DNA of 64,000 nucleotides, from the NCBI GenBank assembly GCA_031177685.1, contig JAPSGI010000011.1, positions 1-64,000 of the forward strand, read 5' to 3'. The first letter of the stretch is position 1. Every line of letters begins with the position of its first letter. Shown piece after piece: positions 2,513 to 13,813 of this stretch. Below the pieces are notes generated by a model. It was not told where the DNA came from, searched no databases, and saw only the letters and a list, made by a program, of their open reading frames with translations. Source of the DNA: Solirubrobacteraceae bacterium. GTDB lineage: Bacteria; Actinomycetota; Thermoleophilia; Solirubrobacterales; Solirubrobacteraceae. Made by a program: the position numbers and the translations under genes.

Positions 2513-3769
2513 ATGGCCATAGATGCGCTCCATTGCAAGGAATGTCGGGCCGAGTACGACCTCGGCGCGCACTACGTCTGCGAGCGGTGCTTCGGTCCGC
2601 TCGAGGTGACCTACCGGCACGCTCCGGTCGGCGACGTCGCGGCGGTGCGCCGCCGCATACAGGGCGGGCCCCAGAACATCTGGCGCTACGCCGACTTCCT
2701 CCCGCTGGAGGTGCAGCCGGGGCCCTCGCGGCGCGCGGCCTCGCGCGCCGGCCTGCCCGCCGGCTGCACGCCGCTCGTGCGCGCCGACCGCCTGGCCGAG
2801 CGCTTGGGGCTTGGCCAGGTGTGGGTCAAGAACGACGCCGCCAACCCGACGCACTCGTTCAAGGACCGCGTCGTCTCCGTGGCGCTGGCCCGCGCGCGCG
2901 AGCTGGGCTTCGACACGCTGGCCTGCGCCTCAACCGGCAACCTGGCCAACTCCGTCGCCGCGCACGCCGCGGCCGCGGGGCTGCGGTCCTACGTCTTCAT
3001 CCCGGCCGACCTGGAGGAGCAGAAGGTACTGGCGACGGGTGTCTACGGCACCAACGTCGTCGCCGTGAACGGCACCTACGACGACGTCAACCGCCTGTGC
3101 ACCGAGCTGTCGGCCGAGCACCCGTGGGCGTTCGTGAACGTCAACCTGCGGCCCTACTACGCCGAGGGGTCCAAGACGCTGGCCTACGAGACGGCCGAGC
3201 AGCTCGGGTGGGAGACGCCCGACCGCGTCGTGGCGCCCATCGCCTCGGGCTCGCTGTTCACGAAGCTCGCGCGCGGGTTCGAGGAGTGGCTGGAACTGGG
3301 GCTGATCGAGGGCGACGTACCGAAGTTCCACGGCGCCCAGGCTTCGGGGTGCGCGCCGGTGGCCAACGCCTACGCGAGCGGCCACGAGGTCTGCCGGCCG
3401 GTCAAGCCCGACACCATCGCCAAGTCGCTGGCCATCGGCAACCCGGCCGACGGGCCCTACGCCCTGGAGCTGGCGCGGCGCACCGGCGGCTCCATCGACG
3501 CCGTCACCGACGACGAGGTCCGCGCCGGCATCCGGCTGCTGGCCGAGACGACGGGGATCTTCACCGAGACGGCCGGCGGCGTGACGACCGCGACGCTGGC
3601 CAAGTTGGCGGGCCGCGGCGACATCGGCCGCGACGAGCGCGTGGTCGTCTACATCACCGGCGAGGGCCTGAAGACCCTCGACGCGGTGCGCGGCACGTTC
3701 GCCGTCCACCAGGTCGACGCCTCCGTGGACTCGTTCGCGGCGACCCTCCCCTCGGCGGTGACCGCTTGA
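2513..3769 (+). CDS. thrC: Threonine synthase-like PLP enzyme
   Basis: A 418-residue fold-type II PLP enzyme. A small N-terminal zinc-ribbon-like segment (C8, C11, C23, C26) precedes the catalytic domain; HSFKDR holds the Schiff-base lysine K117. Family knowledge says threonine synthase turns O-phosphohomoserine into threonine and phosphate. Two facts make the simple label uncertain: an OFF-type SAM riboswitch controls it, and the next gene, overlapping by one base (TGATG), is a ThiS/MoaD-like sulfur carrier. That setting would also fit a homocysteine- or cysteine-forming enzyme fed by a protein thiocarboxylate, as CysM is by CysO. No other thr or met gene is adjacent. Confidence 0.85.
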   Translation: MAIDALHCKECRAEYDLGAHYVCERCFGPLEVTYRHAPVGDVAAVRRRIQGGPQNIWRYADFLPLEVQPGPSRRAASRAGLPAGCTPLVRADRLAERLGLGQVWVKNDAANPTHSFKDRVVSVALARARELGFDTLACASTGNLANSVAAHAAAAGLRSYVFIPADLEEQKVLATGVYGTNVVAVNGTYDDVNRLCTELSAEHPWAFVNVNLRPYYAEGSKTLAYETAEQLGWETPDRVVAPIASGSLFTKLARGFEEWLELGLIEGDVPKFHGAQASGCAPVANAYASGHEVCRPVKPDTIAKSLAIGNPADGPYALELARRTGGSIDAVTDDEVRAGIRLLAETTGIFTETAGGVTTATLAKLAGRGDIGRDERVVVYITGEGLKTLDAVRGTFAVHQVDASVDSFAATLPSAVTA

Positions 3770-4041
3770 TGGGGGTCACGGTGTCGATACCCACGCAGCT
3801 GCGCGGGGTGACCGGCGGCGACGCCGAGGCGCAGGTCTCCGGCGGCACCGTGGGCGAGGTGCTCGACGAGCTGTTCGACCGCTACGACGACCTGCGCGAC
3901 CGCATCTGCGAGGACGGCGGCCTGCGCCGCTTCGTCAACGTCTACGTCGGCGGAGAGGACATCCGCTTCCTGTCCGGGCTGGACACAGAGGTCGCCGACG
4001 GCGACGAGGTGAAGATCCTGCCCGCGGTCGCCGGCGGGTAA
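3769..4041 (+). CDS. ThiS/MoaD-like ubiquitin-fold sulfur carrier
   Basis: A 90-residue beta-grasp protein that ends in AVAGG, the diglycine tail adenylated and thiocarboxylated in ThiS, MoaD and CysO. The fold is visible in the N-terminal strand VTVSIPTQLR, the helix GEVLDELFDRY and the late DGDEVKILPAVAGG segment. It starts one base inside the thrC stop codon and is therefore translationally coupled and under the same SAM riboswitch. No E1-like activating enzyme (ThiF/MoeB) or JAMM peptidase is in the window. Since the GG is already at the C-terminus, no processing peptidase would be needed. Confidence 0.9.
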   Translation: MGVTVSIPTQLRGVTGGDAEAQVSGGTVGEVLDELFDRYDDLRDRICEDGGLRRFVNVYVGGEDIRFLSGLDTEVADGDEVKILPAVAGG

Positions 4042-4067
4042 CCGGCTCGCCCGCTTCCCCCGTCGCG

Positions 4068-4073
4068 TAGTCT
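4068..4073 (+). promoter_or_regulatory. Candidate -10 box of the mce operon
   Basis: TAGTCT lies 23 bases before the TTG start at 4097. A purine-rich GGCAGGGGAA in between can serve as the ribosome site. Confidence 0.35.
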
Positions 4074-4096
4074 GCCAGCGGGCAGGCAGGGGAACT

Positions 4097-5518
4097 TTGG
4101 CGGAACCGGTCGACGCAAAGCGCACGGAAGAAGGTGGGGTGCTGGCCCGGTGGGCCGCGCTGGGAGCCGTGGCGCTCGGTGCGCTCGCGGTGGCCATCCT
4201 GCTGCTGAGCGCCGGCGACGCCTACAAGGTCAAGGCGCGCTTCCAGACCGCGGGCCAGCTGTACGAGGGCAATCTCGTGCAGGCGTCGGGCAAGCGGGTC
4301 GGCGTGATCAAGGCGGTCGAGCTGACCGACGACGGCCGGGCCGAGGTCACGATGGAGCTCGAGGACACCGTCGTCCCGCTGCGCCAGGGGACCGAGGCGA
4401 CCATCCGCCAGTCCTCGCTGTCCAGCGTGGCGGGACGCTACGTCGACCTCAACCTCGGGCCGGCCGGCGCGCCGGAGATCCCGGACGGCGGCGAGATCTC
4501 CGAGCGCGACACGACCACCGCGGTCGACATCGACCAGCTGTTCGCGCTGTTCGACAAGCGCACGCGCCGCGGCCTGACCAACTTCATCCGCGGCAACGCG
4601 GCCCAGTACCGCGGGATGGGCGAGGAAACCAACGCGGGCTGGCACTACCTCAACCCGTCGCTGGTCGCGTCGGCGCGCCTGTTCGCCGAGCTGCACCGCG
4701 ACGACGAGCTGCTGCAGCGCTTCGTGGTCGCCTCCTCCAAGCTGGTCACCGACGTGGCCGAGCGCCGCGACGACCTGGCCTCGCTGATCGACGGCCTCGC
4801 CACCACCACGGGCGCGATCGCGCGCGAGCGCCAGGCGCTGGCGTCGGCCATCGTGCAGCTGCCGCCGTTCATGCGGCGCGCCAACTCGACGTTCGTGAAC
4901 CTGCGCGCCACGCTGGACGACGTCGACCCGCTGGTCGAGGAGTCCAAGCCCGTCGCACGCCGCCTGCGTCCCGTGCTGCGCCAGCTGCGCGGCTTCGCCG
5001 TCGACGCGCGCCCGACGGTGCGCAACCTCGCGGACGTGGTGCGCCGACGTGGGCGCGACAACGACCTGATCGAGCTCGGGGGCGCCACGATCCAGTTCCG
5101 CGACGTCGCGATCGGCCCCGTGCAGGCCAACGGCAAGCAGCGGCGCGGCTCGCTGCCCGAGTCGCGCGAGTCGCTGGCCGAGCAGACCGGCCACTGGGCC
5201 TTCCAGCGGCCGTACGCCGTCGACCTCACCGGCTGGTTCGACGACTTCAGCCACTCCGGCATCTACGACGCCTACGGCAGCGCGTCGCGCGTGGCCACCA
5301 GCGTCCCGGCCTTCCGGATCGTCGAGGGGACGATTCCGACCCTCGACTTCGTCGACTACGACGACCGCGCCGCGCTGTTCCGCTCGATCGCGATGACCGG
5401 CCAGAACAACCGCTGTCCGGGCGCGGTGGAGCGCGGGCAGAACCGCGACGGCTCCGCGCCGTGGCGGCCCTCGCCGGACTACAACTGCAACCCCCAACAC
5501 GTCCCGCTCGGCCCGTGA
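4097..5518 (+). CDS. Mce-family protein, first of six
   Basis: A 473-residue protein with a short cytoplasmic tail, one membrane segment (about 18-38), an MCE/MlaD domain (about 43-122, starting YKVKARFQTAGQL) and a long helical region. The C-terminal part carries cysteines near CPGAVERG and PDYNC that may pair outside the cell. Mce proteins form hexameric tunnels that carry lipids or sterols through the envelope for an ABC-type permease. I chose the TTG at 4097 because it follows a purine-rich site and places the membrane segment normally. It is the first gene of a six-gene array, which matches mceA-F in number; assignment by position is inference. Confidence 0.88.
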   Translation: MAEPVDAKRTEEGGVLARWAALGAVALGALAVAILLLSAGDAYKVKARFQTAGQLYEGNLVQASGKRVGVIKAVELTDDGRAEVTMELEDTVVPLRQGTEATIRQSSLSSVAGRYVDLNLGPAGAPEIPDGGEISERDTTTAVDIDQLFALFDKRTRRGLTNFIRGNAAQYRGMGEETNAGWHYLNPSLVASARLFAELHRDDELLQRFVVASSKLVTDVAERRDDLASLIDGLATTTGAIARERQALASAIVQLPPFMRRANSTFVNLRATLDDVDPLVEESKPVARRLRPVLRQLRGFAVDARPTVRNLADVVRRRGRDNDLIELGGATIQFRDVAIGPVQANGKQRRGSLPESRESLAEQTGHWAFQRPYAVDLTGWFDDFSHSGIYDAYGSASRVATSVPAFRIVEGTIPTLDFVDYDDRAALFRSIAMTGQNNRCPGAVERGQNRDGSAPWRPSPDYNCNPQHVPLGP

Positions 5519-7089
5519 GGCGCCTGGCGGTCATCGGGCTGGTCCTCGCCGCGGGCGCCGCCTTCCTGACGGCGGGCGCGTTCGGCGAGGACTCCAAGCA
5601 GCGCTACTCGGTGGAGATGGACAACGCGTTCGGCCTGATCGAGGGCGCCGACGTCAAGGTCGCCGGCGTGCGCGCGGGGCAGATCAAGTCGATGGAGGTG
5701 CATCCGCGCACGCACCGCGCGATCGTCGAGGTCGAGATCACCGAGGGCGGGTTCGGCTCCCTGCGCCGCGACGTCTTCTGCGAGTCGCGCCCCCAGTCGC
5801 TGATCGGCGAGTACTACCTGGACTGCCTGCCCGGCAAGGCGCGGGAGGTGCTGCCGCCGGGCAGCACCATCCCCGTGCAGCGCACCGCGTCCACCGTGCC
5901 GGTGGACCTGGTCAACAACATCATGCGCCGGCCCTACCGGGAGCGCTTCTCGATCCTGATCGGCGAGCTCGGCGCGGGCCTGGGCGCGCGCGGGGAGGAC
6001 CTCAACGAGACGATCCGCCGCCTGAGCCCGGCGCTGCGCGAGACCGACAAGGTGCTGGCCATCCTGGCCCAGCAGCGCCGGATCATCCGCGACCTGACCG
6101 GCGACGCGGACACGGTCCTGGCGCGGCTGTCCGACAACCGCGAGGACGTCACCCGCTTCATCTCCGAGGCGCGCGACACCTCCAAGGCCTCCGCCGCCGA
6201 GGCCGACGACATCGCGCGCCAGTTCAACCGCCTGCCGCCCTTCCTGCGCGAGCTGCGCCCGACGCTCAACGCGCTGGGCGAGGCGGCCGACGGCCAGATC
6301 GACGCGCTGGGCGCGCTGAACGCCAACGCCGGGCGCCTGCGCAGCTTCTTCGACGCGCTCGGGCCCTTCTCCGACGCCTCGCGTCCCTCCACCCGCACGC
6401 TGGCCGGCGCGGCCCGCGCGGGGCGTCCCGCCGTGCGCGCGGCGCGCCCGCGCATCGCGGAGCTGCGCGACTTCGCCCGTGCCGCGCCCGAGCTGACGCG
6501 CAACCTCGCCTACGTGCTGGAGGACGTGGACTCGCGCGAAAAGGCGACCGAGAAGGACCCGCGCGCGCCGGAGGGCCGCGGCTACACCGGCCTGGAGGCG
6601 ATCCTGCAGTACGTCTTCAACCAGTCGCAGGCGATCAACGTCTTCGACAACGACTCCTACATCCTCAAGGCGAGCGTCTTCTACGACCAGCTGTGCGCCC
6701 CGTACACGGATGCCAAGCAGGCGCGCGAGGAGCGCGAGCGCGACCGCTGCGATGCGGGCTTCGGACCGCGCCGGCCCGGCATCAACGAGCCCGACCCGAG
6801 CCTGCGGCCGGGCGAGCAGGCCCGGGCGCGGCGCGCGCGCGAGACGACCGACATCCTCGAGGCCGCGCGCCGCGCCGCCGACGACCCCACGGCGGCGGCG
6901 GGCCGCCCGTCCACGCCGACCTCCGCGCCGCGCCCGACCCCCGGCGGGCTGGGCGAGGCGCTGGGCGGTCTCCTCGACGGCCGGCTGCCGGACGTCAAGC
7001 TGCCCGAGCTGCCGCAGGCGCTCCCGCGCGACCCGCTCGGCGGCTCCTCCGCCAACCCGACCCTCCTCGACTACCTCCTGGGCGCATGA
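5515..7089 (+). CDS. Mce-family protein, second of six
   Basis: Starts at a GTG that overlaps the previous stop by four bases (GTGA), giving 524 residues. An N-terminal signal-anchor (about 2-20) leads into an MCE domain (about 32-108, NAFGLIEGADVKVAGVRAG) with two cysteines (FCES, LDCLPG) not found in the first protein. A long helical region follows, then a Pro/Ala/Thr-rich tail (about 440-524), a layout typical of actinobacterial Mce proteins whose tails are exposed to the wall. An in-frame ATG far upstream at 4150 lies inside the first gene and is not credible. Confidence 0.88.
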   Translation: MRRLAVIGLVLAAGAAFLTAGAFGEDSKQRYSVEMDNAFGLIEGADVKVAGVRAGQIKSMEVHPRTHRAIVEVEITEGGFGSLRRDVFCESRPQSLIGEYYLDCLPGKAREVLPPGSTIPVQRTASTVPVDLVNNIMRRPYRERFSILIGELGAGLGARGEDLNETIRRLSPALRETDKVLAILAQQRRIIRDLTGDADTVLARLSDNREDVTRFISEARDTSKASAAEADDIARQFNRLPPFLRELRPTLNALGEAADGQIDALGALNANAGRLRSFFDALGPFSDASRPSTRTLAGAARAGRPAVRAARPRIAELRDFARAAPELTRNLAYVLEDVDSREKATEKDPRAPEGRGYTGLEAILQYVFNQSQAINVFDNDSYILKASVFYDQLCAPYTDAKQAREERERDRCDAGFGPRRPGINEPDPSLRPGEQARARRARETTDILEAARRAADDPTAAAGRPSTPTSAPRPTPGGLGEALGGLLDGRLPDVKLPELPQALPRDPLGGSSANPTLLDYLLGA

Positions 7090-8594
7090 GAAGGCGCGGG
7101 CAGGGATCCATCGTGGCCAACCCCGTGCTCGTCGGGGCGGTCACCACGCTGGTCACGGTCGTGGCGGTGTTCCTGGCCTACAACGCGAACAACGGCCTGC
7201 CCTTCGTGCCCACGAGCCAGCTCAAGGTGCAGGTCTCCAACGGCGCGGCGCTGCTGCCCGGCAACGACGTGCGCGAGGGCGGCTACCGCATCGGCGTGGT
7301 CGAGGACATGAAGCCGGTGCGCCTGGGCGACGGGTCGGTGGGCGCCGAGGCGATCCTCAAGCTCGACGCCAAGGCCGGCGGGGTGCCGGTGGACAGCCGC
7401 GTCCAGATCCGCCCGCGCTCCGTGCTGGGGCTCAAGTACGTCGAGCTCACGCGTGGACGCTCGGAGCGCGACTTCCGCAACGGCGACACGCTGCCGCTGG
7501 ACCAGACGCACCTGCCCGTCGACCTCGACCGGCTCTACGACATCTTCGACGCGCCCACGCGCGTGGCCTCGCAACAGAATCTGCGCGGCTTTGGGGACAC
7601 GCTCGCCCTGCGCGGCGACTCGATCAACGACACGATCGCCGCCGCGCCGCGGTTTTTGAGGCACCTGCAGCCGGTGATGACCGTGCTGGCCGACCGGGAA
7701 ACGGAGTTCGCGCGCTTCTGGAAGGAGCTGGGCGACGCCGCGCGCATCGTCGCGCCGGTGGCCGACGCGTACGCCCACGGCTTCACCGCGGGGGCCGACA
7801 CCTTCGAGGCGTGGTCGCGCGACCCGGTGGCGCTGCAGGAGACGATCCGCCGCTCGGTCCCCTCGCTGGAGGCGGGCATCCGCTCGTTCCCGGTCCAGCG
7901 GCCCTTCCTGCGCGACTTCGCGCGCTTCTCGCACGCCCTGGCGGACGCCGGCGAGGAGATGCCACGCGCCCTGCCGCGGCTCACCTCGGCGCTGCGCGTG
8001 GGGACGCCGGTCCTGCGGCGCACGCCCGAGATCAACGACGAGCTGCGCCGCGCCCTCGCCCAGGCGCGCCAGCTGTTCGCGGCGCCGGGAACCGGGATCG
8101 CCTTCCGCGGGCTGATCGCCACCGCGGCCACGCTGAACCCGAGCCTGCGGTTCATCGGCCCCTACATCACGGTCTGCAACTACTTCAACTACGCCTGGAC
8201 CAACGTGGCCGAGCACCTCACCGAGCCCGACCCGACGGGCTTCGCGCAGCGCACGCTGCTCAACCAGGCGCCGCGCCAGGACAACTCGCCCGGCTCGATC
8301 GGCTCCACGCAGCCGGCCACCGGGAAGGGCGTCCAGAGCGGCACGCCGGCGTTCCTGCACCTCAACGTGTACACCGCCGCCGTCGATCGCATGGGCAACG
8401 CCGACTGCGAGTCCGGCCAGCGCGGCTACATCAGGCGGGCCAACGTCTACGGGACCGAGGACATCGTCATCGACCCGCACATCCCGGGCAACCAGGGCCC
8501 GACCTACACCGGCCGCCCGAAGGTCCTGCCGGGCCAGACGTTCAGCCGCGCGCCGACGCAGGGCCCGCAGATGCCCAAGGAGCTGGACCCGTGA
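7086..8594 (+). CDS. Mce-family protein, third of six
   Basis: A 502-residue protein starting at the ATG of an ATGA overlap with the second mce gene. The membrane segment spans about 12-31, the MCE domain about 45-125 (LKVQVSNGAALLPGNDVREGG) and the helical domain about 140-360. The C-terminal portion ends in Pro- and Gln-rich sequence without further membrane segments. In mycobacterial clusters each of the six subunits is a different paralogue, so the complex is presumably a heterohexamer. Nothing in the sequence identifies the lipid. Confidence 0.87.
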   Translation: MRRRGQGSIVANPVLVGAVTTLVTVVAVFLAYNANNGLPFVPTSQLKVQVSNGAALLPGNDVREGGYRIGVVEDMKPVRLGDGSVGAEAILKLDAKAGGVPVDSRVQIRPRSVLGLKYVELTRGRSERDFRNGDTLPLDQTHLPVDLDRLYDIFDAPTRVASQQNLRGFGDTLALRGDSINDTIAAAPRFLRHLQPVMTVLADRETEFARFWKELGDAARIVAPVADAYAHGFTAGADTFEAWSRDPVALQETIRRSVPSLEAGIRSFPVQRPFLRDFARFSHALADAGEEMPRALPRLTSALRVGTPVLRRTPEINDELRRALAQARQLFAAPGTGIAFRGLIATAATLNPSLRFIGPYITVCNYFNYAWTNVAEHLTEPDPTGFAQRTLLNQAPRQDNSPGSIGSTQPATGKGVQSGTPAFLHLNVYTAAVDRMGNADCESGQRGYIRRANVYGTEDIVIDPHIPGNQGPTYTGRPKVLPGQTFSRAPTQGPQMPKELDP

Positions 8595-10141
8595 CCATGA
8601 GGCGCAAGCGCACCGAGGGCGACAAGCGGTCGGCGGTCCGCTGGGGCGCGGCCCTGCTGATCCTGGTCGCGATCGGCACGTACCTCGGGTTCACGAAGTC
8701 CGTGCCCTTCCGCGGCCACTACGAGATCAAGGCCGCCTTCAAGACGGTCAACGACCTCAAGCCGGACTCGCCGGTCCGGGTCGCGGGCGTGAACGTGGGC
8801 AAGGTCGCCAAGATCGAGCACGTCGCCGGCGGCAAGGGCGGCCTGGTCACGATCCGCCTCGACGACCGCTCGATTCCCCTGCGCGAGGACGCGCAGATGA
8901 AGATCCGCCCGCGCATCTTCCTGGAGGGCAATTACTTCATCGACGTCAAGCCCGGGTCGCCGGACGCCAAGCCGCTGAAGGAGGGCGCCACGATCCCGGT
9001 CCAGCAGACGGCGGCGCCGGTGCAGTTCGGCGAGCTGCTCACCGCGCTGCAGAGCGACACGCGGCGCGACCTGCAGATCCTGCTCGACGAGTACGGGCGC
9101 GGCGTGTCCGGGCGCGGCGGCGAGGGCTACAACCGCTCGATCCGCTACTGGGAGGGCGCCTACCGCGACGGGGCGATCGTCAACCAGGCGACCCTGGGGA
9201 TCCTCGAGCACGACCTGTCGGGCTACATCAAGGGCGCCGGGGCGGTGGCCGAGGCCCTGGACCGCGACCCGCAGGCGCTCAAGGACCTGATCACCGACTT
9301 CTCGACCACCGCGAACGCGCTGGCCTCCGAGTCCACGAACCTCAGCGCGACCATCGCCGAGCTGCCGCGGACGCTGCGGGCGGGGCGCCGCGCGCTGGGG
9401 TCGCTGAACGCCGCGTTCCCGTCCTTCCGGCGCTTCATCGCCGCCATGCGGCCCGCCGTGCGCTCCTCGCGCCCGGCGCTGGACGCCGCGCTGCCCTTCG
9501 TGCGCCAGCTGCGCGGGCTGGTGTCGCGGCCCGAGCTGCGCGGCCTGTCGTCCGAGCTGCGCGCGGTCACCCCCGACCTGGTCGAGCTCAACCGCGGCGG
9601 CGTGCCGCTGCACCGCCAGATCCGCGCGCTGTCCTCCTGCCAGAACAACGTGGTGCTGCCGTGGACGAACGACACGATCCCCGACCAGAAGTTCAAGGCC
9701 ACGGGGCCCGTCTACCAGGAGGCGCCCAAGACGCTGACCGGGCTGTCGGGCGAGAGCCGCTCCTTCGACGCCAACGGCCAGTACGTGCGCTCGCTCGCCG
9801 CCACCGCCAACTACTCCTTCGCCACCGGGGACGGCCGGCGCTTCTTCACCACCGACCCGATCCAGGGCGTCCAGCCGCCCAAGGCGCTCAAGGGGCGCCC
9901 GCCGCTGATGCCCAACGTGCCGTGCGAGACGCAGGAGCCTCCGGACCTGCGCACGAACGTGCAGCAGCCGCCCTCGCAGGAGAAGGTCGACCACAGCCGC
10001 GTGCCGGGCAGCAAGCTCGAGGCGCGCGCGCGGGCGGGCCTGGTGCGGATCATCCGCGAGCACGTGGACCGCACGGGCACGCCCATGCGCATGACGGGCG
10101 TCGGCAAGACCGTGACGATCAAGCCGAGGGCGCTGCGATGA
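8591..10141 (+). CDS. Mce-family protein, fourth of six
   Basis: Two starts are possible: GTG at 8591, which overlaps the previous stop (GTGA), and ATG at 8597. AAGGAG at 8577-8582 is 8 bases from the GTG but 14 from the ATG, so I prefer 8591 (516 residues). One membrane segment (about 17-35) and an MCE domain (about 43-122, VRVAGVNVGKVAKI) precede a helical region. The last 150 residues are polar and contain two separated cysteines (SSCQNN and NVPCET). Confidence 0.87.
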   Translation: MTMRRKRTEGDKRSAVRWGAALLILVAIGTYLGFTKSVPFRGHYEIKAAFKTVNDLKPDSPVRVAGVNVGKVAKIEHVAGGKGGLVTIRLDDRSIPLREDAQMKIRPRIFLEGNYFIDVKPGSPDAKPLKEGATIPVQQTAAPVQFGELLTALQSDTRRDLQILLDEYGRGVSGRGGEGYNRSIRYWEGAYRDGAIVNQATLGILEHDLSGYIKGAGAVAEALDRDPQALKDLITDFSTTANALASESTNLSATIAELPRTLRAGRRALGSLNAAFPSFRRFIAAMRPAVRSSRPALDAALPFVRQLRGLVSRPELRGLSSELRAVTPDLVELNRGGVPLHRQIRALSSCQNNVVLPWTNDTIPDQKFKATGPVYQEAPKTLTGLSGESRSFDANGQYVRSLAATANYSFATGDGRRFFTTDPIQGVQPPKALKGRPPLMPNVPCETQEPPDLRTNVQQPPSQEKVDHSRVPGSKLEARARAGLVRIIREHVDRTGTPMRMTGVGKTVTIKPRALR

Positions 10142-11469
10142 GGCGCGCGATCGTCAAGCACCGCACGGACTTCCTCGCGATCGTCGCGCTGGTGGCGATC
10201 GCGACCGGGGTCGCCTACTACATCCTGCAGAACCAGCGCCTGCGCATCCCCTTCGTCGAGGAGTCGCCGTTCATCCTCAAGGCCGAGTACTCGACGGCCC
10301 AGGCGGTGACCCCCGGACAGGGCCAGACGGTGCGCGTCTCGGGCGTGCGGATCGGCGACATCGGCAAGGTCGACCTCGATCGCACCGGCCGGGCGGTGAT
10401 CACGATGGAGATCGACCGCAAGTACGAGGGCCTCGTGCGCACCGACGCCACCGCGCTGCTGCGGCCCAAGACCGGCCTGAAGGACATGTTCATCGAGCTG
10501 GACCCGGGCACCCACGCCGCGCCCGAGGCCGAGTACGGCTGGAGGATGCCGCTGCACAACACGCTGCCCGACGTCAACCCCGACGAGTTCCTGGCCTCGC
10601 TGGACCGCGACACGCGCGACTACCTCCAGCTGCTCCTGAATGGGGCGGGCCGCGGTCTGAAGGGCCGGGGCACCGACCTGCAGGACGCGCTCGCGCGCTT
10701 CGAGCCGACGTTCCGCGACATCGCCGCCGTGACCGGGGAGGTGCGCAAGCGCCGTGGCGAGCTGCGGCGGCTCATCCACTCGCTCAACCGCCTCAACGCC
10801 GAGGTGGCGAGCAAGGACGACGACCTGGCCGAGCTGATCACCACGTCCTCGCGCGTGTTCCGCGCGTTCGCCTCGGAGTCGGCCAACGTGTCGGCCACGA
10901 TCCGCGAGTTCCCCTCGACGCTGCGCCAGGCCACGACCACGCTGGACAAGGTCGACCGCATGGCGCGCCTGCTGGGCCCGACCTCGGAGAAGCTCGTGCC
11001 GGTCGCCGGCGCGATCGTGCGCGCGAACGTCGCGACGACGCCGTACGCGCGCGAGGCCGCGCCGCTGCTGCGCAAGGACATCCGACCCTTCGTGCGCGAG
11101 CTGCGCCCGCTCATGCGCGACCTGCGCCCCACGGCGCACGACCTGGTGGAGGCCGAGCCCTTCCTGACGCGGTCGTTCGTGGTCCTCAACCACCTGTTCA
11201 ACCTGCTCGCCTACAACCCGGAGGGCCGCGAGCCCCCGGACAAGGCGACGCGCGAGGAGGGCTACCTGTTCCACCTCGGGTGGCTGCAGCACCAGGTGGC
11301 CAACCTGTTCCCGTCCGGCGACGCGCACGGCCCGGGCCGCCCGATCACCACCGGCGGCACCTGCGCCACCTTCCGCGCGCTGCTGGAGAACGAGCCCGAG
11401 GCGGCGCTGCTGACCGGCTTCGGCGGCGTCCTGACCGATCCCACGATCTGCGGAGGGGGCCAGCCCTAA
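10138..11469 (+). CDS. Mce-family protein, fifth of six
   Basis: A 443-residue protein starting at an ATGA overlap. The signal-anchor is at about 12-29, the MCE domain at about 43-120 (VRVSGVRIGDIGKVDL), then helices to about 330 and a short C-terminal part with two cysteines (GGTCATF, TICGGG). In mycobacteria the fifth subunit (MceE/LprK) is normally a lipoprotein; no lipobox cysteine is visible here, so anchoring would be by the membrane segment instead. Confidence 0.87.
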   Translation: MRRAIVKHRTDFLAIVALVAIATGVAYYILQNQRLRIPFVEESPFILKAEYSTAQAVTPGQGQTVRVSGVRIGDIGKVDLDRTGRAVITMEIDRKYEGLVRTDATALLRPKTGLKDMFIELDPGTHAAPEAEYGWRMPLHNTLPDVNPDEFLASLDRDTRDYLQLLLNGAGRGLKGRGTDLQDALARFEPTFRDIAAVTGEVRKRRGELRRLIHSLNRLNAEVASKDDDLAELITTSSRVFRAFASESANVSATIREFPSTLRQATTTLDKVDRMARLLGPTSEKLVPVAGAIVRANVATTPYAREAAPLLRKDIRPFVRELRPLMRDLRPTAHDLVEAEPFLTRSFVVLNHLFNLLAYNPEGREPPDKATREEGYLFHLGWLQHQVANLFPSGDAHGPGRPITTGGTCATFRALLENEPEAALLTGFGGVLTDPTICGGGQP

Positions 11470-11472
11470 GCC

Positions 11473-12933
11473 ATGCAGAAGCAGGCCCCCTCCTTCGTCC
11501 GCATCCTCACGATGGCGCTGTTCGCGCTGTCGTGCTTCGGGCTGCTGCTGTTCCTGTGGCTGGCCTTCGGCGGCGCGTCGCCGCTCAAGCCGGTGGGCTA
11601 CCGCTTCGACGTGGCCTTCCCCGAGGCAACGCAGCTGGCGGTCGAGGCCGACGTGCGGGTCGCGGGCGTGCCGGTCGGCAAGGTGCGCGCCAAGCGCGTC
11701 GACCCGCGCGGCAACCGGACGATCGCCACGATCGAGCTCGAGCGCCGCTACGCGCCGATCGCCTCCGACGCGCGCGCCACGCTGCGCACCAAGACGCTGC
11801 TGGGGGAGACCTACGTCGACCTGACCACCGGTTCGCCGGCGGCGGACCCCGTGCCCGAGGGCGGGATGCTGCCGTCCCGCAACGTCAAGCCGTCGGTCGA
11901 GCTGGACGAGATCCTCGACGCGCTGGACCCCTACACGCGCCAGGCCTTCCGCACGTGGCAGCAGAGCCTGGCCCAGGGCGTGCGCGGCCGCGGGCAGGAC
12001 CTCAACGACGCGCTGGGCAACCTGCCCGCCTTCGTGCAGGAGGGCGGCGACCTGACGGAGATCCTGGACCGCGAGAAGGAGGCGCTCGGCCTGCTCGTGC
12101 GCAACACCGGCGTGGTGTTCGGGGCGCTGACCGAGCGCGAGGAGCAGCTGCGCAACCTCGTCGTCAACGTCGACGACGTGTTCTCCACGATCGCGCAGGA
12201 GCGCGAGTCCTTCGCCGAGGTCTGGCAGGTGTTCCCGACGTTCCTGGACGAGTCGCGCCTGACCTACGACCGCCTGCGCACGTTCTCGCAGGACACGCGG
12301 CCGCTGATCCGCGACCTGACGCCGGCCGTGCAGGACCTCGGGCCGACGCTGCGCGCGCTGGGCGACCTGGCGCCCGACCTGCAGCGGCTGTTCGTCAACC
12401 TCGACCCGCTGATCGACGTGTCCAAGCGCTCGCTGCCCGCGCTGCGCGAGGTCCTCGCCGGGCTGGAGCCGACCCTGGCCGCGCTGGGCCCGTGGCTGCA
12501 GGAGGTCAACCCGATCCTGGAGTGGGTCGGCCAGCACCAGGCCACGCTGACCGACATGTTCGCCAACCTCGGCGTGGCCACGGGCGCCAAGACGGCCTCC
12601 GGCGACCCGCGCGCGACCGGCCACTACCTGCGCCAGTTCGGGGCGACCGGCGTGGAGACGATCGCCGTGCACCAGCGGCGCCTGAGCTCCAACCGCGGCA
12701 ACGCGTACTTCAACCCGCTGGCCGTGACGGGTGCGGAGATCGCGCGCACGCAGATCCTGCCGTCGTGGGACTGCAAGAACACGGGCGTCGCGGCCAACGA
12801 GGGGCAGAAGGCCGCGGACACCGGCGGCCCGGGCGCCACGCCGGCGTGCCGCATCCAGGGCCCGTACTCGTACAAGGGCGCGGCGCGGGCCTTCCCGCAC
12901 GTCGAGGGGTCGAACTACTCGCGCAGGCGCTAG
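11473..12933 (+). CDS. Mce-family protein, sixth of six
   Basis: A 486-residue protein starting three bases after the fifth gene. Membrane segment about 11-33, MCE domain about 40-118 (VRVAGVPVGKVRAKRV), a long helical region, and a C-terminal part with two cysteines (SWDCKN, TPACRI). Its stop TAG is the first three bases of a TAGCGT box that may drive the following glycosyltransferase. No permease or ATPase follows it, so the array ends without the membrane partners that Mce tunnels need. Confidence 0.87.
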   Translation: MQKQAPSFVRILTMALFALSCFGLLLFLWLAFGGASPLKPVGYRFDVAFPEATQLAVEADVRVAGVPVGKVRAKRVDPRGNRTIATIELERRYAPIASDARATLRTKTLLGETYVDLTTGSPAADPVPEGGMLPSRNVKPSVELDEILDALDPYTRQAFRTWQQSLAQGVRGRGQDLNDALGNLPAFVQEGGDLTEILDREKEALGLLVRNTGVVFGALTEREEQLRNLVVNVDDVFSTIAQERESFAEVWQVFPTFLDESRLTYDRLRTFSQDTRPLIRDLTPAVQDLGPTLRALGDLAPDLQRLFVNLDPLIDVSKRSLPALREVLAGLEPTLAALGPWLQEVNPILEWVGQHQATLTDMFANLGVATGAKTASGDPRATGHYLRQFGATGVETIAVHQRRLSSNRGNAYFNPLAVTGAEIARTQILPSWDCKNTGVAANEGQKAADTGGPGATPACRIQGPYSYKGAARAFPHVEGSNYSRRR

Positions 12934-12943
12934 CGTCGCGCCC

Positions 12944-13813
12944 GTGGCGCGGCCCGCGGTCTCGGTGATCGTCCCCTTCGCCGGCTCCCCGGACGAGCTG
13001 CGCGCGGCGGTCGCGCGGCTGCGCGGGCTGCGCCACGGCGACTGGGACGAGCTGATCGTGGCCGACAACCGCGCCGCGCCGGCCGCGCCGGACGACCTCG
13101 GGCCGGTGCGCTGGCTGCGCGCGGGCGGGGTGGCGGCGCCCGGGGCGGCGCGCAACGCGGGCGCGCGCGCCGCCAGCGGCGAGTGGCTGGTGTTCGTGGA
13201 CGCCGACACGGAGCCGTCCCCGGACCTGCTCGACGCGTACTTCGACCCGCCGCCCGGCGAGCGCGTGGGCGTCCTGGCCGGCGGGATCGACGACGTGGCG
13301 GACGCGGAAACGCTGGCCGCGCGCTACGTGACGTCGCGGGCGATGATGGACCACCGTTCGACCCTCGTGCACCCGCACGCGCCCTACGCGCAGACGGCGA
13401 ACTGCGCGGTGCGCCGCGACGCGTTCGAGGCGGTGCGGGGGTTCGACGAGGCCGCCCGCTGGGCCGAGGACGCGGACCTGTGCTGGCGGCTGCGCCAGCT
13501 CGGCTGGACGCTCGAGGAGCGCCCGGGCGCCCGCGTCGCGCACCGCAACCGCGACACGCTGCGCGCGCTGGTGGCCCAGCAGGTCGGCCACGGCGCGGGC
13601 GCGCGCTGGCTGAACCGCGTCCATCCGGGCTCGTCGCCGGCGCCCTCGCCGCGCGAGCTGGTGGGCCAGGCGCGCTTCTTCCTGGTCCGCGCGGCGCGCG
13701 CGGCCCGCGCGGGCGATCGCGAGGCCGCGCGCCTGGCGCTGCTCGACGTGCTGGCGCGCGGCGCCTTCGAGGCGGGGCGCCTGCGCTCCAACGTCCCGCG
13801 GGCGCTGGGCTAG
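12944..13813 (+). CDS. Family 2 glycosyltransferase
   Basis: A 289-residue GT2 enzyme starting at GTG 12944 (ARPAVSVIVP). The aspartate motif VDAD is at 85-88, and AEDADLCWR near residue 170 carries the family ED pair. There is no transmembrane segment, so it is probably cytoplasmic or peripheral. TAGCGT ends 7 bases before the start. It shares its stop tetranucleotide CTAG with the opposite SRPBCC gene. Together with the gene at 325 it brackets the riboswitch and mce block, but sequence alone does not link them functionally. Confidence 0.85.
   Translation: MARPAVSVIVPFAGSPDELRAAVARLRGLRHGDWDELIVADNRAAPAAPDDLGPVRWLRAGGVAAPGAARNAGARAASGEWLVFVDADTEPSPDLLDAYFDPPPGERVGVLAGGIDDVADAETLAARYVTSRAMMDHRSTLVHPHAPYAQTANCAVRRDAFEAVRGFDEAARWAEDADLCWRLRQLGWTLEERPGARVAHRNRDTLRALVAQQVGHGAGARWLNRVHPGSSPAPSPRELVGQARFFLVRAARAARAGDREAARLALLDVLARGAFEAGRLRSNVPRALG

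What the first reader, a model, noticed from the sequence alone, without database searches (positions are those of the whole stretch)
4097..12933. Six Mce genes without permease or ATPase
Mycobacterial mce operons begin with two yrbE genes; here the gene before the first mce is a sulfur carrier and the gene after the last is a glycosyltransferase. The six proteins are otherwise complete and tightly coupled. Either the permease is encoded elsewhere or this array works with a different partner.
Basis: partly seen in the sequence, partly recalled or inferred. Interest (0 to 1): 0.55.

Follow-up and report, generated by a model that had tools for sequence, protein, structure and literature searches.

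The report
Lipid-transport needle genes without their pump
A bacterium related to Solirubrobacter carries a full six-gene set for a lipid-transport needle whose membrane pump genes lie elsewhere in the genome, and related bacteria suggest that one pump may serve several such needles.

Summary
In detail: six complete, overlapping MCE genes in the order A to F (4097-12933), a ThiS-like gene before, a GT2 glycosyltransferase after, no permease or ATPase beside them. The permease is encoded elsewhere. This draft genome, apparently of Solirubrobacterales, has four MCE arrays; only one follows a yrbEA-yrbEB-mceG set. It also has an extra yrbE pair, a lone yrbEB and one MceG-like ATPase. In eight relatives with one yrbE pair and one MCE array, picked because coordinates suggested a split, both loci were read: 8 of 8 are split. 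A recognisable core locus (yrbEA-yrbEB-mceG, then MMPL) occurs with and without the six-gene cassette. The window's MceA lies in a clade of 30 rows: 27 stand-alone, 3 unjudged, none linked. YrbE and MCE domains co-occur in 61 genomes of the order (54 both, 7 neither). I conclude that the array is a heterohexameric MCE needle docking in trans on a shared YrbEAB-MceG importer. Docking is inferred from genomes; nothing biochemical was tested. It extends MceG sharing and Mce1A replacement, known in mycobacteria, to whole permeases and whole needles. Seven literature searches showed no report of it.

The parts
4097..5518 (+). mceA-like gene (start TTG 4097 or GTG 4139); N-terminal membrane helix, MCE domain, helical region
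   Evidence: PF02470 54.2 bits; TIGR00996 106.2 bits, below its cut-off; in a MceA clade without linked members
5515..7089 (+). mceB-like gene, 4-base overlap with mceA
   Evidence: PF02470 45.0 bits; start
7086..8594 (+). mceC-like gene, ATGA overlap with mceB
   Evidence: PF02470 34.7 bits on 7113-8594; upstream start codon seen
8591..10141 (+). mceD-like gene, 4-base overlap with mceC
   Evidence: PF02470 53.4 bits; start
10138..11469 (+). mceE-like gene, 4-base overlap with mceD
   Evidence: PF02470 42.3 bits; start
11473..12933 (+). mceF-like gene
   Evidence: PF02470 64.8 bits; phmmer to 8fed_B, E 4.8e-12 over residues 15-281; model: helix 8-31, beta MCE region 43-142, helices from 145 to 371, mean pLDDT only 52.9
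3769..4041 (+). flanking gene, not part of the system: ThiS-family sulfur carrier
   Evidence: PF02597 58 bits; no relative among neighbours of the clade's arrays
12944..13813 (+). flanking gene, not part of the system: GT2 glycosyltransferase
   Evidence: PF00535 53.7 bits; no relative among neighbours of the clade's arrays

Best explanation
The window encodes a complete heterohexameric MCE lipid needle (A to F) that docks in trans on a shared ABC importer core, YrbEA-YrbEB plus an MceG-type ATPase, encoded elsewhere in the same genome. Several needles, diverged in sequence and probably in substrate, take turns on closely similar permeases. Shown: the genes, their order, the absence of a local permease, the number of yrbE and mceG genes found, and the split in relatives. 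Inferred: physical docking, exchange, import direction, lipid substrate, and that the needles differ in substrate.
For: Own genome: four MCE arrays (C2, C13, C17, and C16/C15 read as one array cut by a contig gap) against two yrbEA, three yrbEB and one MceG-like ATPase (773 bits to itself; next ABC ATPase 117.5 bits, 36% identity). In 8 of 8 relatives whose loci I read for this (one yrbE pair, one array, chosen because the listings suggested a split) pair and array lie on different contigs and the pair is followed by mceG without MCE genes; each has one MceG match at E below 1e-60, G026 two. A core locus known by its neighbours has the cassette in some genomes and lacks it in others. The window array's clade: 27 stand-alone, 3 unknown, 0 linked of 30 rows, support 100/91; it includes the only array of G005, G043 and G054. 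Co-occurrence: 54 both, 7 neither, 0 discordant of 61 (counts). YrbE copies here are 83-96% identical within type, arrays 38-60%; in G033 and G006, own-permease arrays with 43.5-54.2% MCE identity have YrbE proteins 54-72% identical. The segment before the MCE domain is better kept between arrays taken to share a permease: genome medians of segment/domain identity 0.84-1.03 in 5 genomes against 0.65-0.85 in 6 (p 0.017).
Against: No protein-level evidence of docking. The genome is a 31-contig draft, 96.6% complete, so another yrbE pair could be missing. The orphan yrbE pair and lone yrbEB could be preferred partners of particular arrays. Low YrbE counts of G004, G048 and G056 may come from contig ends. 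In G052 one array has mceG at a contig end and may have its own yrbE beyond it, yet I counted G052 as sharing. The segment test overlaps at one genome (G032, 0.85), has an outlier here (C17 against C16/15, 0.50, 3 of 6 subunits usable), compares genomes of unequal divergence, and its pairs are not independent. Arrays exceed pairs by about one or more in 12 of 54 genomes of the order and in none of 16 controls outside the class, which is only suggestive (Fisher p 0.055); 8 of the 54 have more pairs than arrays by at least half a pair, some through gene fragments. Several single-array relatives look linked in the same listings.
Confidence: 0.8

Rival explanations
1. The array has a dedicated partner among the extra yrbE copies (orphan pair on C17 at 114.6-116.2 kb, lone yrbEB on C31), separated from it by rearrangement: unlinked one-to-one pairs, no sharing.
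For: An orphan pair and a lone yrbEB exist; 31 of 54 genomes of the order are balanced within half an array.
Against: Four arrays against two pairs and one extra yrbEB here. G037, on one contig, has two arrays and one pair; G050 has three arrays and two yrbE genes. The yrbE copies are 83-96% identical within type, unlike the permeases of separate linked systems compared.
Confidence: 0.12
2. The array works with a permease of another family, as E. coli PqiB and LetB do with PqiA and LetA (recalled).
For: MCE proteins with non-ABC partners are known in Gram-negatives (recalled).
Against: No PF04403 (PqiA) match in this genome. Window proteins have one MCE domain each. No membrane-protein neighbour shared with the clade among the eight flanking genes compared. 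YrbE present in every one of the 54 genomes with MCE domains.
Confidence: 0.04
3. The array is a non-functional leftover, or the MCE proteins act without any pump.
For: No permease nearby. No sigma-70-like promoter in 3700-13100, but chance would give 0.1, so this is uninformative.
Against: All six frames are open with tight junctions; arrays of this clade occur in genomes of families f1, f2 and f3.
Confidence: 0.03
4. Assembly artefact: the yrbE pair belongs here but was lost.
For: Draft genome; another array of this genome is cut by contig ends (C16/C15).
Against: Upstream genes are contiguous with the array; no linked member among the 30 clade rows; G037, on one contig, also has a stand-alone array.
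Confidence: 0.01

Closest known systems
Mycobacterial Mce1 transporter (YrbE1A/B-MceG plus Mce1A-F heterohexamer; PDB 8fed)
   Same: Six distinct single-MCE-domain subunits in the order A-F, two YrbE types, one MceG-like ATPase; window MceF, this genome's YrbEA and MceG match chains of 8fed.
   Different: In M. tuberculosis each cluster has its own two yrbE genes (PMC9882608, passages; PMC1810536, section 5). Here whole arrays lack them. The MceG here matches 8fed_G over residues 6-250, up to its own end, and has an N-terminal extension.
MceG sharing and Mce1A replacement by MSMEG_6540 in M. smegmatis
   Same: Parts encoded elsewhere join one transporter: one ATPase thought to serve several Mce systems, and one separately encoded MceA replacing Mce1A (PMC9882608 and PMC10517005, passages).
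   Different: There one subunit is exchanged; here the complete six-gene needle set and the permease pair are in separate loci.
Actinomycetales mce operon as defined by Casali and Riley 2007
   Same: Six clustered mce genes.
ABC importers in which several binding proteins share one permease (recalled, e.g. HisJ and LAO protein with HisQMP)
   Same: Interchangeable substrate-capturing parts on one membrane engine.
   Different: Those are single soluble proteins, not six-subunit needles.

Membership tests
MCE/MlaD domain proteins (PF02470) | MCE domain above curated cut-off | tested here: met
   6 of 6 proteins
Mycobacterial-type Mce proteins (NCBIfam TIGR00996) | score above the curated cut-off of 140.5 bits | tested here: not met
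   Listed first for each of the six proteins, but at 75.3 to 135.8 bits; so not filed under this model
Mce heterohexameric needle | six different subunits A-F in one gene array, each with membrane helix, one MCE domain and helical region | tested here: met
   Gene order and one domain each; anatomy of MceF in a low-confidence model; membrane helices and helical regions of the other five only read by eye
Mce heterohexameric needle | the six proteins form one ring on YrbEAB | not testable with these tools
   No complex prediction or biochemistry available
Actinomycetales mce operon (Casali and Riley) | two yrbE genes clustered with the six mce genes | tested here: not met
   No PF02405 hit on the contig
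PqiA/LetA-partnered MCE systems | PqiA-family partner in the genome | tested here: not met
   No PF04403 match in the genome
PqiB/LetB-type MCE proteins | several MCE domains in one chain (recalled) | tested here: not met
   One domain stretch per protein

The most novel reading that the evidence does not exclude
In Solirubrobacterales the MCE transporter is modular at the level of whole machines: an engine operon (YrbEA-YrbEB-MceG-MMPL), in many genomes with no needle of its own, and a changing stock of stand-alone six-gene needle cassettes that exchange on it to give one pump several lipid specificities.
Probability: 0.6. Interest if true: 0.68.

Novelty: new variant of a known kind. Interest (0 to 1): 0.55.

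Why it matters
Mce transporters import fatty acids and cholesterol in mycobacteria, and what sets their substrate is open. If whole needles swap on one permease, the needle rather than the permease would carry specificity, and genomes with one pump and several needles would give a natural test. It would also mean that counting yrbE pairs undercounts Mce systems and that stand-alone arrays should not be dismissed as broken.

Tried and rejected
A PqiA-type partner was sought and not found. A conserved alternative partner was sought among up to four genes on either side of the clade's arrays: 29 of 30 loci had neighbours to compare, all 29 upstream and only 18 downstream. The commonest shared neighbours were a sigma-70-family factor (12 loci) and a HAMP/cyclase protein (8 loci), named by Pfam on examples only; the next largest groups were not all identified, and one looks by eye like a YihY-type membrane protein (4 loci). 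None of these is next to the window's array. A promoter and terminator scan gave nothing. The structure model of MceF is poor outside the MCE region (mean pLDDT 52.9), so I ran no fold search. The statement that no report was found rests on seven searches of the held open-access library and on passages or one section of three papers; none that I saw describes stand-alone six-gene mce arrays or YrbE pairs shared between arrays. Subscription papers are mostly not held.

Corrections on the way: in the segment test, one search aligned every array through the window's array; one search took one control array (L127) in reversed subunit order; one search corrected this and is the one cited; one search stopped with a script error after three pairs, and completed it. 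Before the tree I dropped six loci that are the same contigs as loci fetched by handle, and MceA rows under 380 residues; 82 rows remained. In that tally 'stand-alone' means at least 1 kb upstream held, at least one called upstream gene, no YrbE among the first three upstream genes and no MceG directly upstream; a yrbE further off on a short contig would be missed. Genes in all fetched loci were called with my own codon-bias caller, not a published one; some starts are wrong and some genes were missed or mislabelled (for example no mceA in L040, no mceB in L044 and L060, doubtful subunit labels in L037 and L053).

Full report
What is there. The window is the first 64 kb of contig C2 of a 3.15 Mb, 31-contig draft genome (96.59% complete, 0.24% contaminated). 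Loci found with its MceA come from records named Solirubrobacterales, Solirubrobacteraceae, Thermoleophilaceae, Solirubrobacter, Paraconexibacter, Conexibacter and unplaced Actinomycetota, so I place the genome in or near Solirubrobacterales (inference). Six genes on the + strand at 4097-12933 each encode one MCE domain, with 4-base overlaps or a 3-base gap between them. The gene before is a ThiS-family protein, the gene after a GT2 glycosyltransferase. No PF02405 hit lies on C2.

Where the pump is. The whole genome gives 5 YrbE hits and 23 MCE-domain hits. Reading the stretches: C17 at about 134.8-146.3 kb has yrbEA, yrbEB, an ABC ATPase and six MCE genes, followed by an MMPL-family protein (Pfam for ATPase and MMPL). 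C13 has six MCE genes and no yrbE beside them. The end of C16 carries A and B; the start of C15 carries a partial gene that I read as the end of C, then D, E and F; I take this as one array cut by a contig gap (inference). No yrbE was called beside either part. C17 at about 114.6-116.2 kb has a second yrbE pair with no MCE genes, and C31 a lone yrbEB-like gene. Only one ATPase is close to the MceG type: 773 bits for itself, the next ABC ATPase 117.5 bits at 36% identity. There is no PqiA match. So four arrays face two yrbEA, three yrbEB and one mceG.

Relatives. Of 61 genomes (this one and 60 relatives of the same family or order, completeness 90% or more asked for), 54 have both YrbE and MCE domains and 7 have neither; none has only one (tallied). 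In 12 of 54 the arrays exceed pairs by about one or more, 31 are balanced within half an array, 8 have more pairs than arrays by half or more, and 3 fall between. The YrbE counts include fragments (for example G042, G049, G054) and genes at contig ends (G004, G048, G056); the MCE counts of G006 and G033 were capped at 74 scored candidates. As a control, 158 genomes drawn from the phylum: the same 26 have both domains. Of these, 21 lie outside the class, and 5 of the 21 have a capped MCE count; the other 16 are all balanced within half an array. The contrast 12 of 54 against 0 of 16 is only suggestive (Fisher p 0.055). Two of the 16, G061 and G148, seem by coordinates to have an array away from their two yrbE pairs.

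The clearest evidence is in genomes with one yrbE pair and one array. I read both loci in eight (G005, G026, G041, G043, G047, G053, G054, G057). In 8 of 8 the array and the pair lie on different contigs, and the pair is followed by mceG and not by MCE genes. I chose these eight because the listings suggested a split; they are not a random draw, and other single-array genomes (for example G002, G009, G015, G017) look linked by coordinates in the same listings. G054's yrbEB is in pieces. In G026 the array begins about 0.35 kb from a contig end, and a second MceG-like gene lies beside it; the other seven have one MceG match at E below 1e-60. G037, on one contig, has one linked and one stand-alone array and a single yrbE pair.

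One locus with and without the cassette. Core loci share some or all of these neighbours: P-II and ammonium-transporter genes and a 194-residue protein upstream; MMPL, AhpC/TSA-like and B3/4-domain proteins downstream (Pfam names on examples; homology across loci). In this genome's C17, in Solirubrobacter soli, Candidatus S. pratensis and Paraconexibacter antarcticus the six MCE genes sit between mceG and MMPL. In G005, G011, G026, G043, G047, G051, G053, G054 and G057 an MMPL relative follows mceG, directly or after one gene, with no MCE genes between; in G041 two other genes intervene. A yrbEA-yrbEB-mceG set without MCE genes is also seen in the single-contig genomes G006 and G032.

The array's own lineage. 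Of 61 loci found by MceA in named genomes, 38 are stand-alone, 10 linked to yrbE, 4 have mceG next to mceA close to a contig end so that yrbE cannot be judged, and 9 cannot be judged at all. In a tree of 82 MceA proteins the window's gene falls in a group of 30 rows with support 100/91: 27 stand-alone, 3 unknown, none linked (rooted at the midpoint for drawing only). The group has members from families f1, f2 and f3 and includes the only arrays of G005, G043 and G054, whose yrbE pair is elsewhere. Stand-alone arrays also occur in other parts of the tree: the label needs at least 7 changes on well-supported branches. Of the eight genes flanking the window array only one has relatives near other arrays of the group (two loci), whereas the related array on C13 keeps neighbours that recur: a sigma-70-family factor in 12 of 29 loci and a HAMP/cyclase protein in 8. 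The window array thus looks relocated (inference).

Are the permeases interchangeable? In this genome the two YrbEA are 95.9% identical and the three YrbEB 83-87%, while the arrays are 38-60% identical subunit by subunit. In G033 and G006, pairs of arrays with their own yrbE pair and 43.5-54.2% MCE identity have YrbE proteins 54-72% identical; one pair at 38.6% MCE identity has YrbE at 69-78%. The extra YrbE copies here are more alike than those of the linked systems compared.

A prediction was then tested. If needles share a permease, the membrane segment just before the MCE domain should diverge slowly. For 21 pairs of arrays from five genomes in which arrays outnumber pairs (G000, G037, G050, G051, G052) against 57 pairs of own-permease arrays from G033 and G006, the ratio of segment to MCE-domain identity has median 0.92 against 0.69. 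At matched domain identity (44-62%) the segment is 48.6% against 36.0% identical (16 and 19 pairs). With four more control genomes (19 pairs), genome medians are 0.84-1.03 in the five and 0.65-0.85 in the six, p 0.017 by rank test on rounded medians. Against it: pairs are not independent; the controls are more diverged (chance level 19.6%, which works against the effect); the sharing set includes arrays next to the shared pair, and a G052 array that may have its own pair beyond a contig end; G051 gave only its two stand-alone arrays and G052 five of six; and C17 against C16/15 in this genome gives 0.50 (3 of 6 subunits usable). I count this as support, not proof.

Mechanism. By homology to Mce1 (PMC9882608, passages) the six proteins should form a hexameric ring and helical needle, YrbEAB the membrane pump, and MceG the ATPase. 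Shown here: the parts, their separation and their co-occurrence. Inferred: docking in trans, exchange of needles, direction and lipid substrate.

Known or new. MceG is thought to be shared between Mce systems, and MSMEG_6540 can replace Mce1A in M. smegmatis (PMC9882608 and PMC10517005, passages). Casali and Riley use 'mce operon' for two yrbE plus six mce genes and found the mce genes almost always behind a yrbE pair (PMC1810536, section 5 and passages). Sharing of whole permeases by whole needle arrays was not described in anything I saw in seven searches. I class it as a new variant of a known kind.

Noticed in passing
L014:11172-11753 (+) and L016:5533-6015 (+): Two proteins of 193 and 160 residues with no Pfam match share a stretch near VRPRLG-LGML-GWW-VKLSSGCPLA; one directly follows the orphan yrbE pair, the other lies in the tail of the core locus, with relatives of the latter 53-58% identical at core loci L024, L028, L032 and L054.
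   Followed up: partly
L015:11399-12427 (+): The MceG-like ATPase has about 95 residues of acidic, proline-rich N-terminal extension and ends where its match to residue 250 of mycobacterial MceG ends, so it seems to lack the long C-terminal extension described in PMC9882608 (passage).
   Followed up: no
L020:1654-6549: Ten short proteins, most beginning MSRENVE or similar, are strung along both strands a few kb before the lone yrbEB gene.
   Followed up: no
L017:1-433 (-) and L017:15899-17437 (+): The related stand-alone array on C13 lies between a sigma-70-family factor and a HAMP/guanylate-cyclase-domain protein; relatives of these recur near 12 and 8 of 29 arrays of the group, a hint at how needle genes may be regulated.
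   Followed up: partly
L131 and L132 (G033:C1:3671000-3709500): In a single-contig genome whose length equals Paraconexibacter antarcticus NZ_CP098502.1, one yrbE pair lies after six MCE genes, and a second pair with the same match scores lies about 19 kb away.
   Followed up: no
G061 and G148 (outside the class): By coordinates two yrbE pairs lie on one contig while MCE hits also lie on another contig, so unlinked arrays may exist outside this order.
   Followed up: no
L028:8134-8694 (-): The only yrbEB found in G054 is in pieces, either an assembly error or a decayed gene.
   Followed up: no
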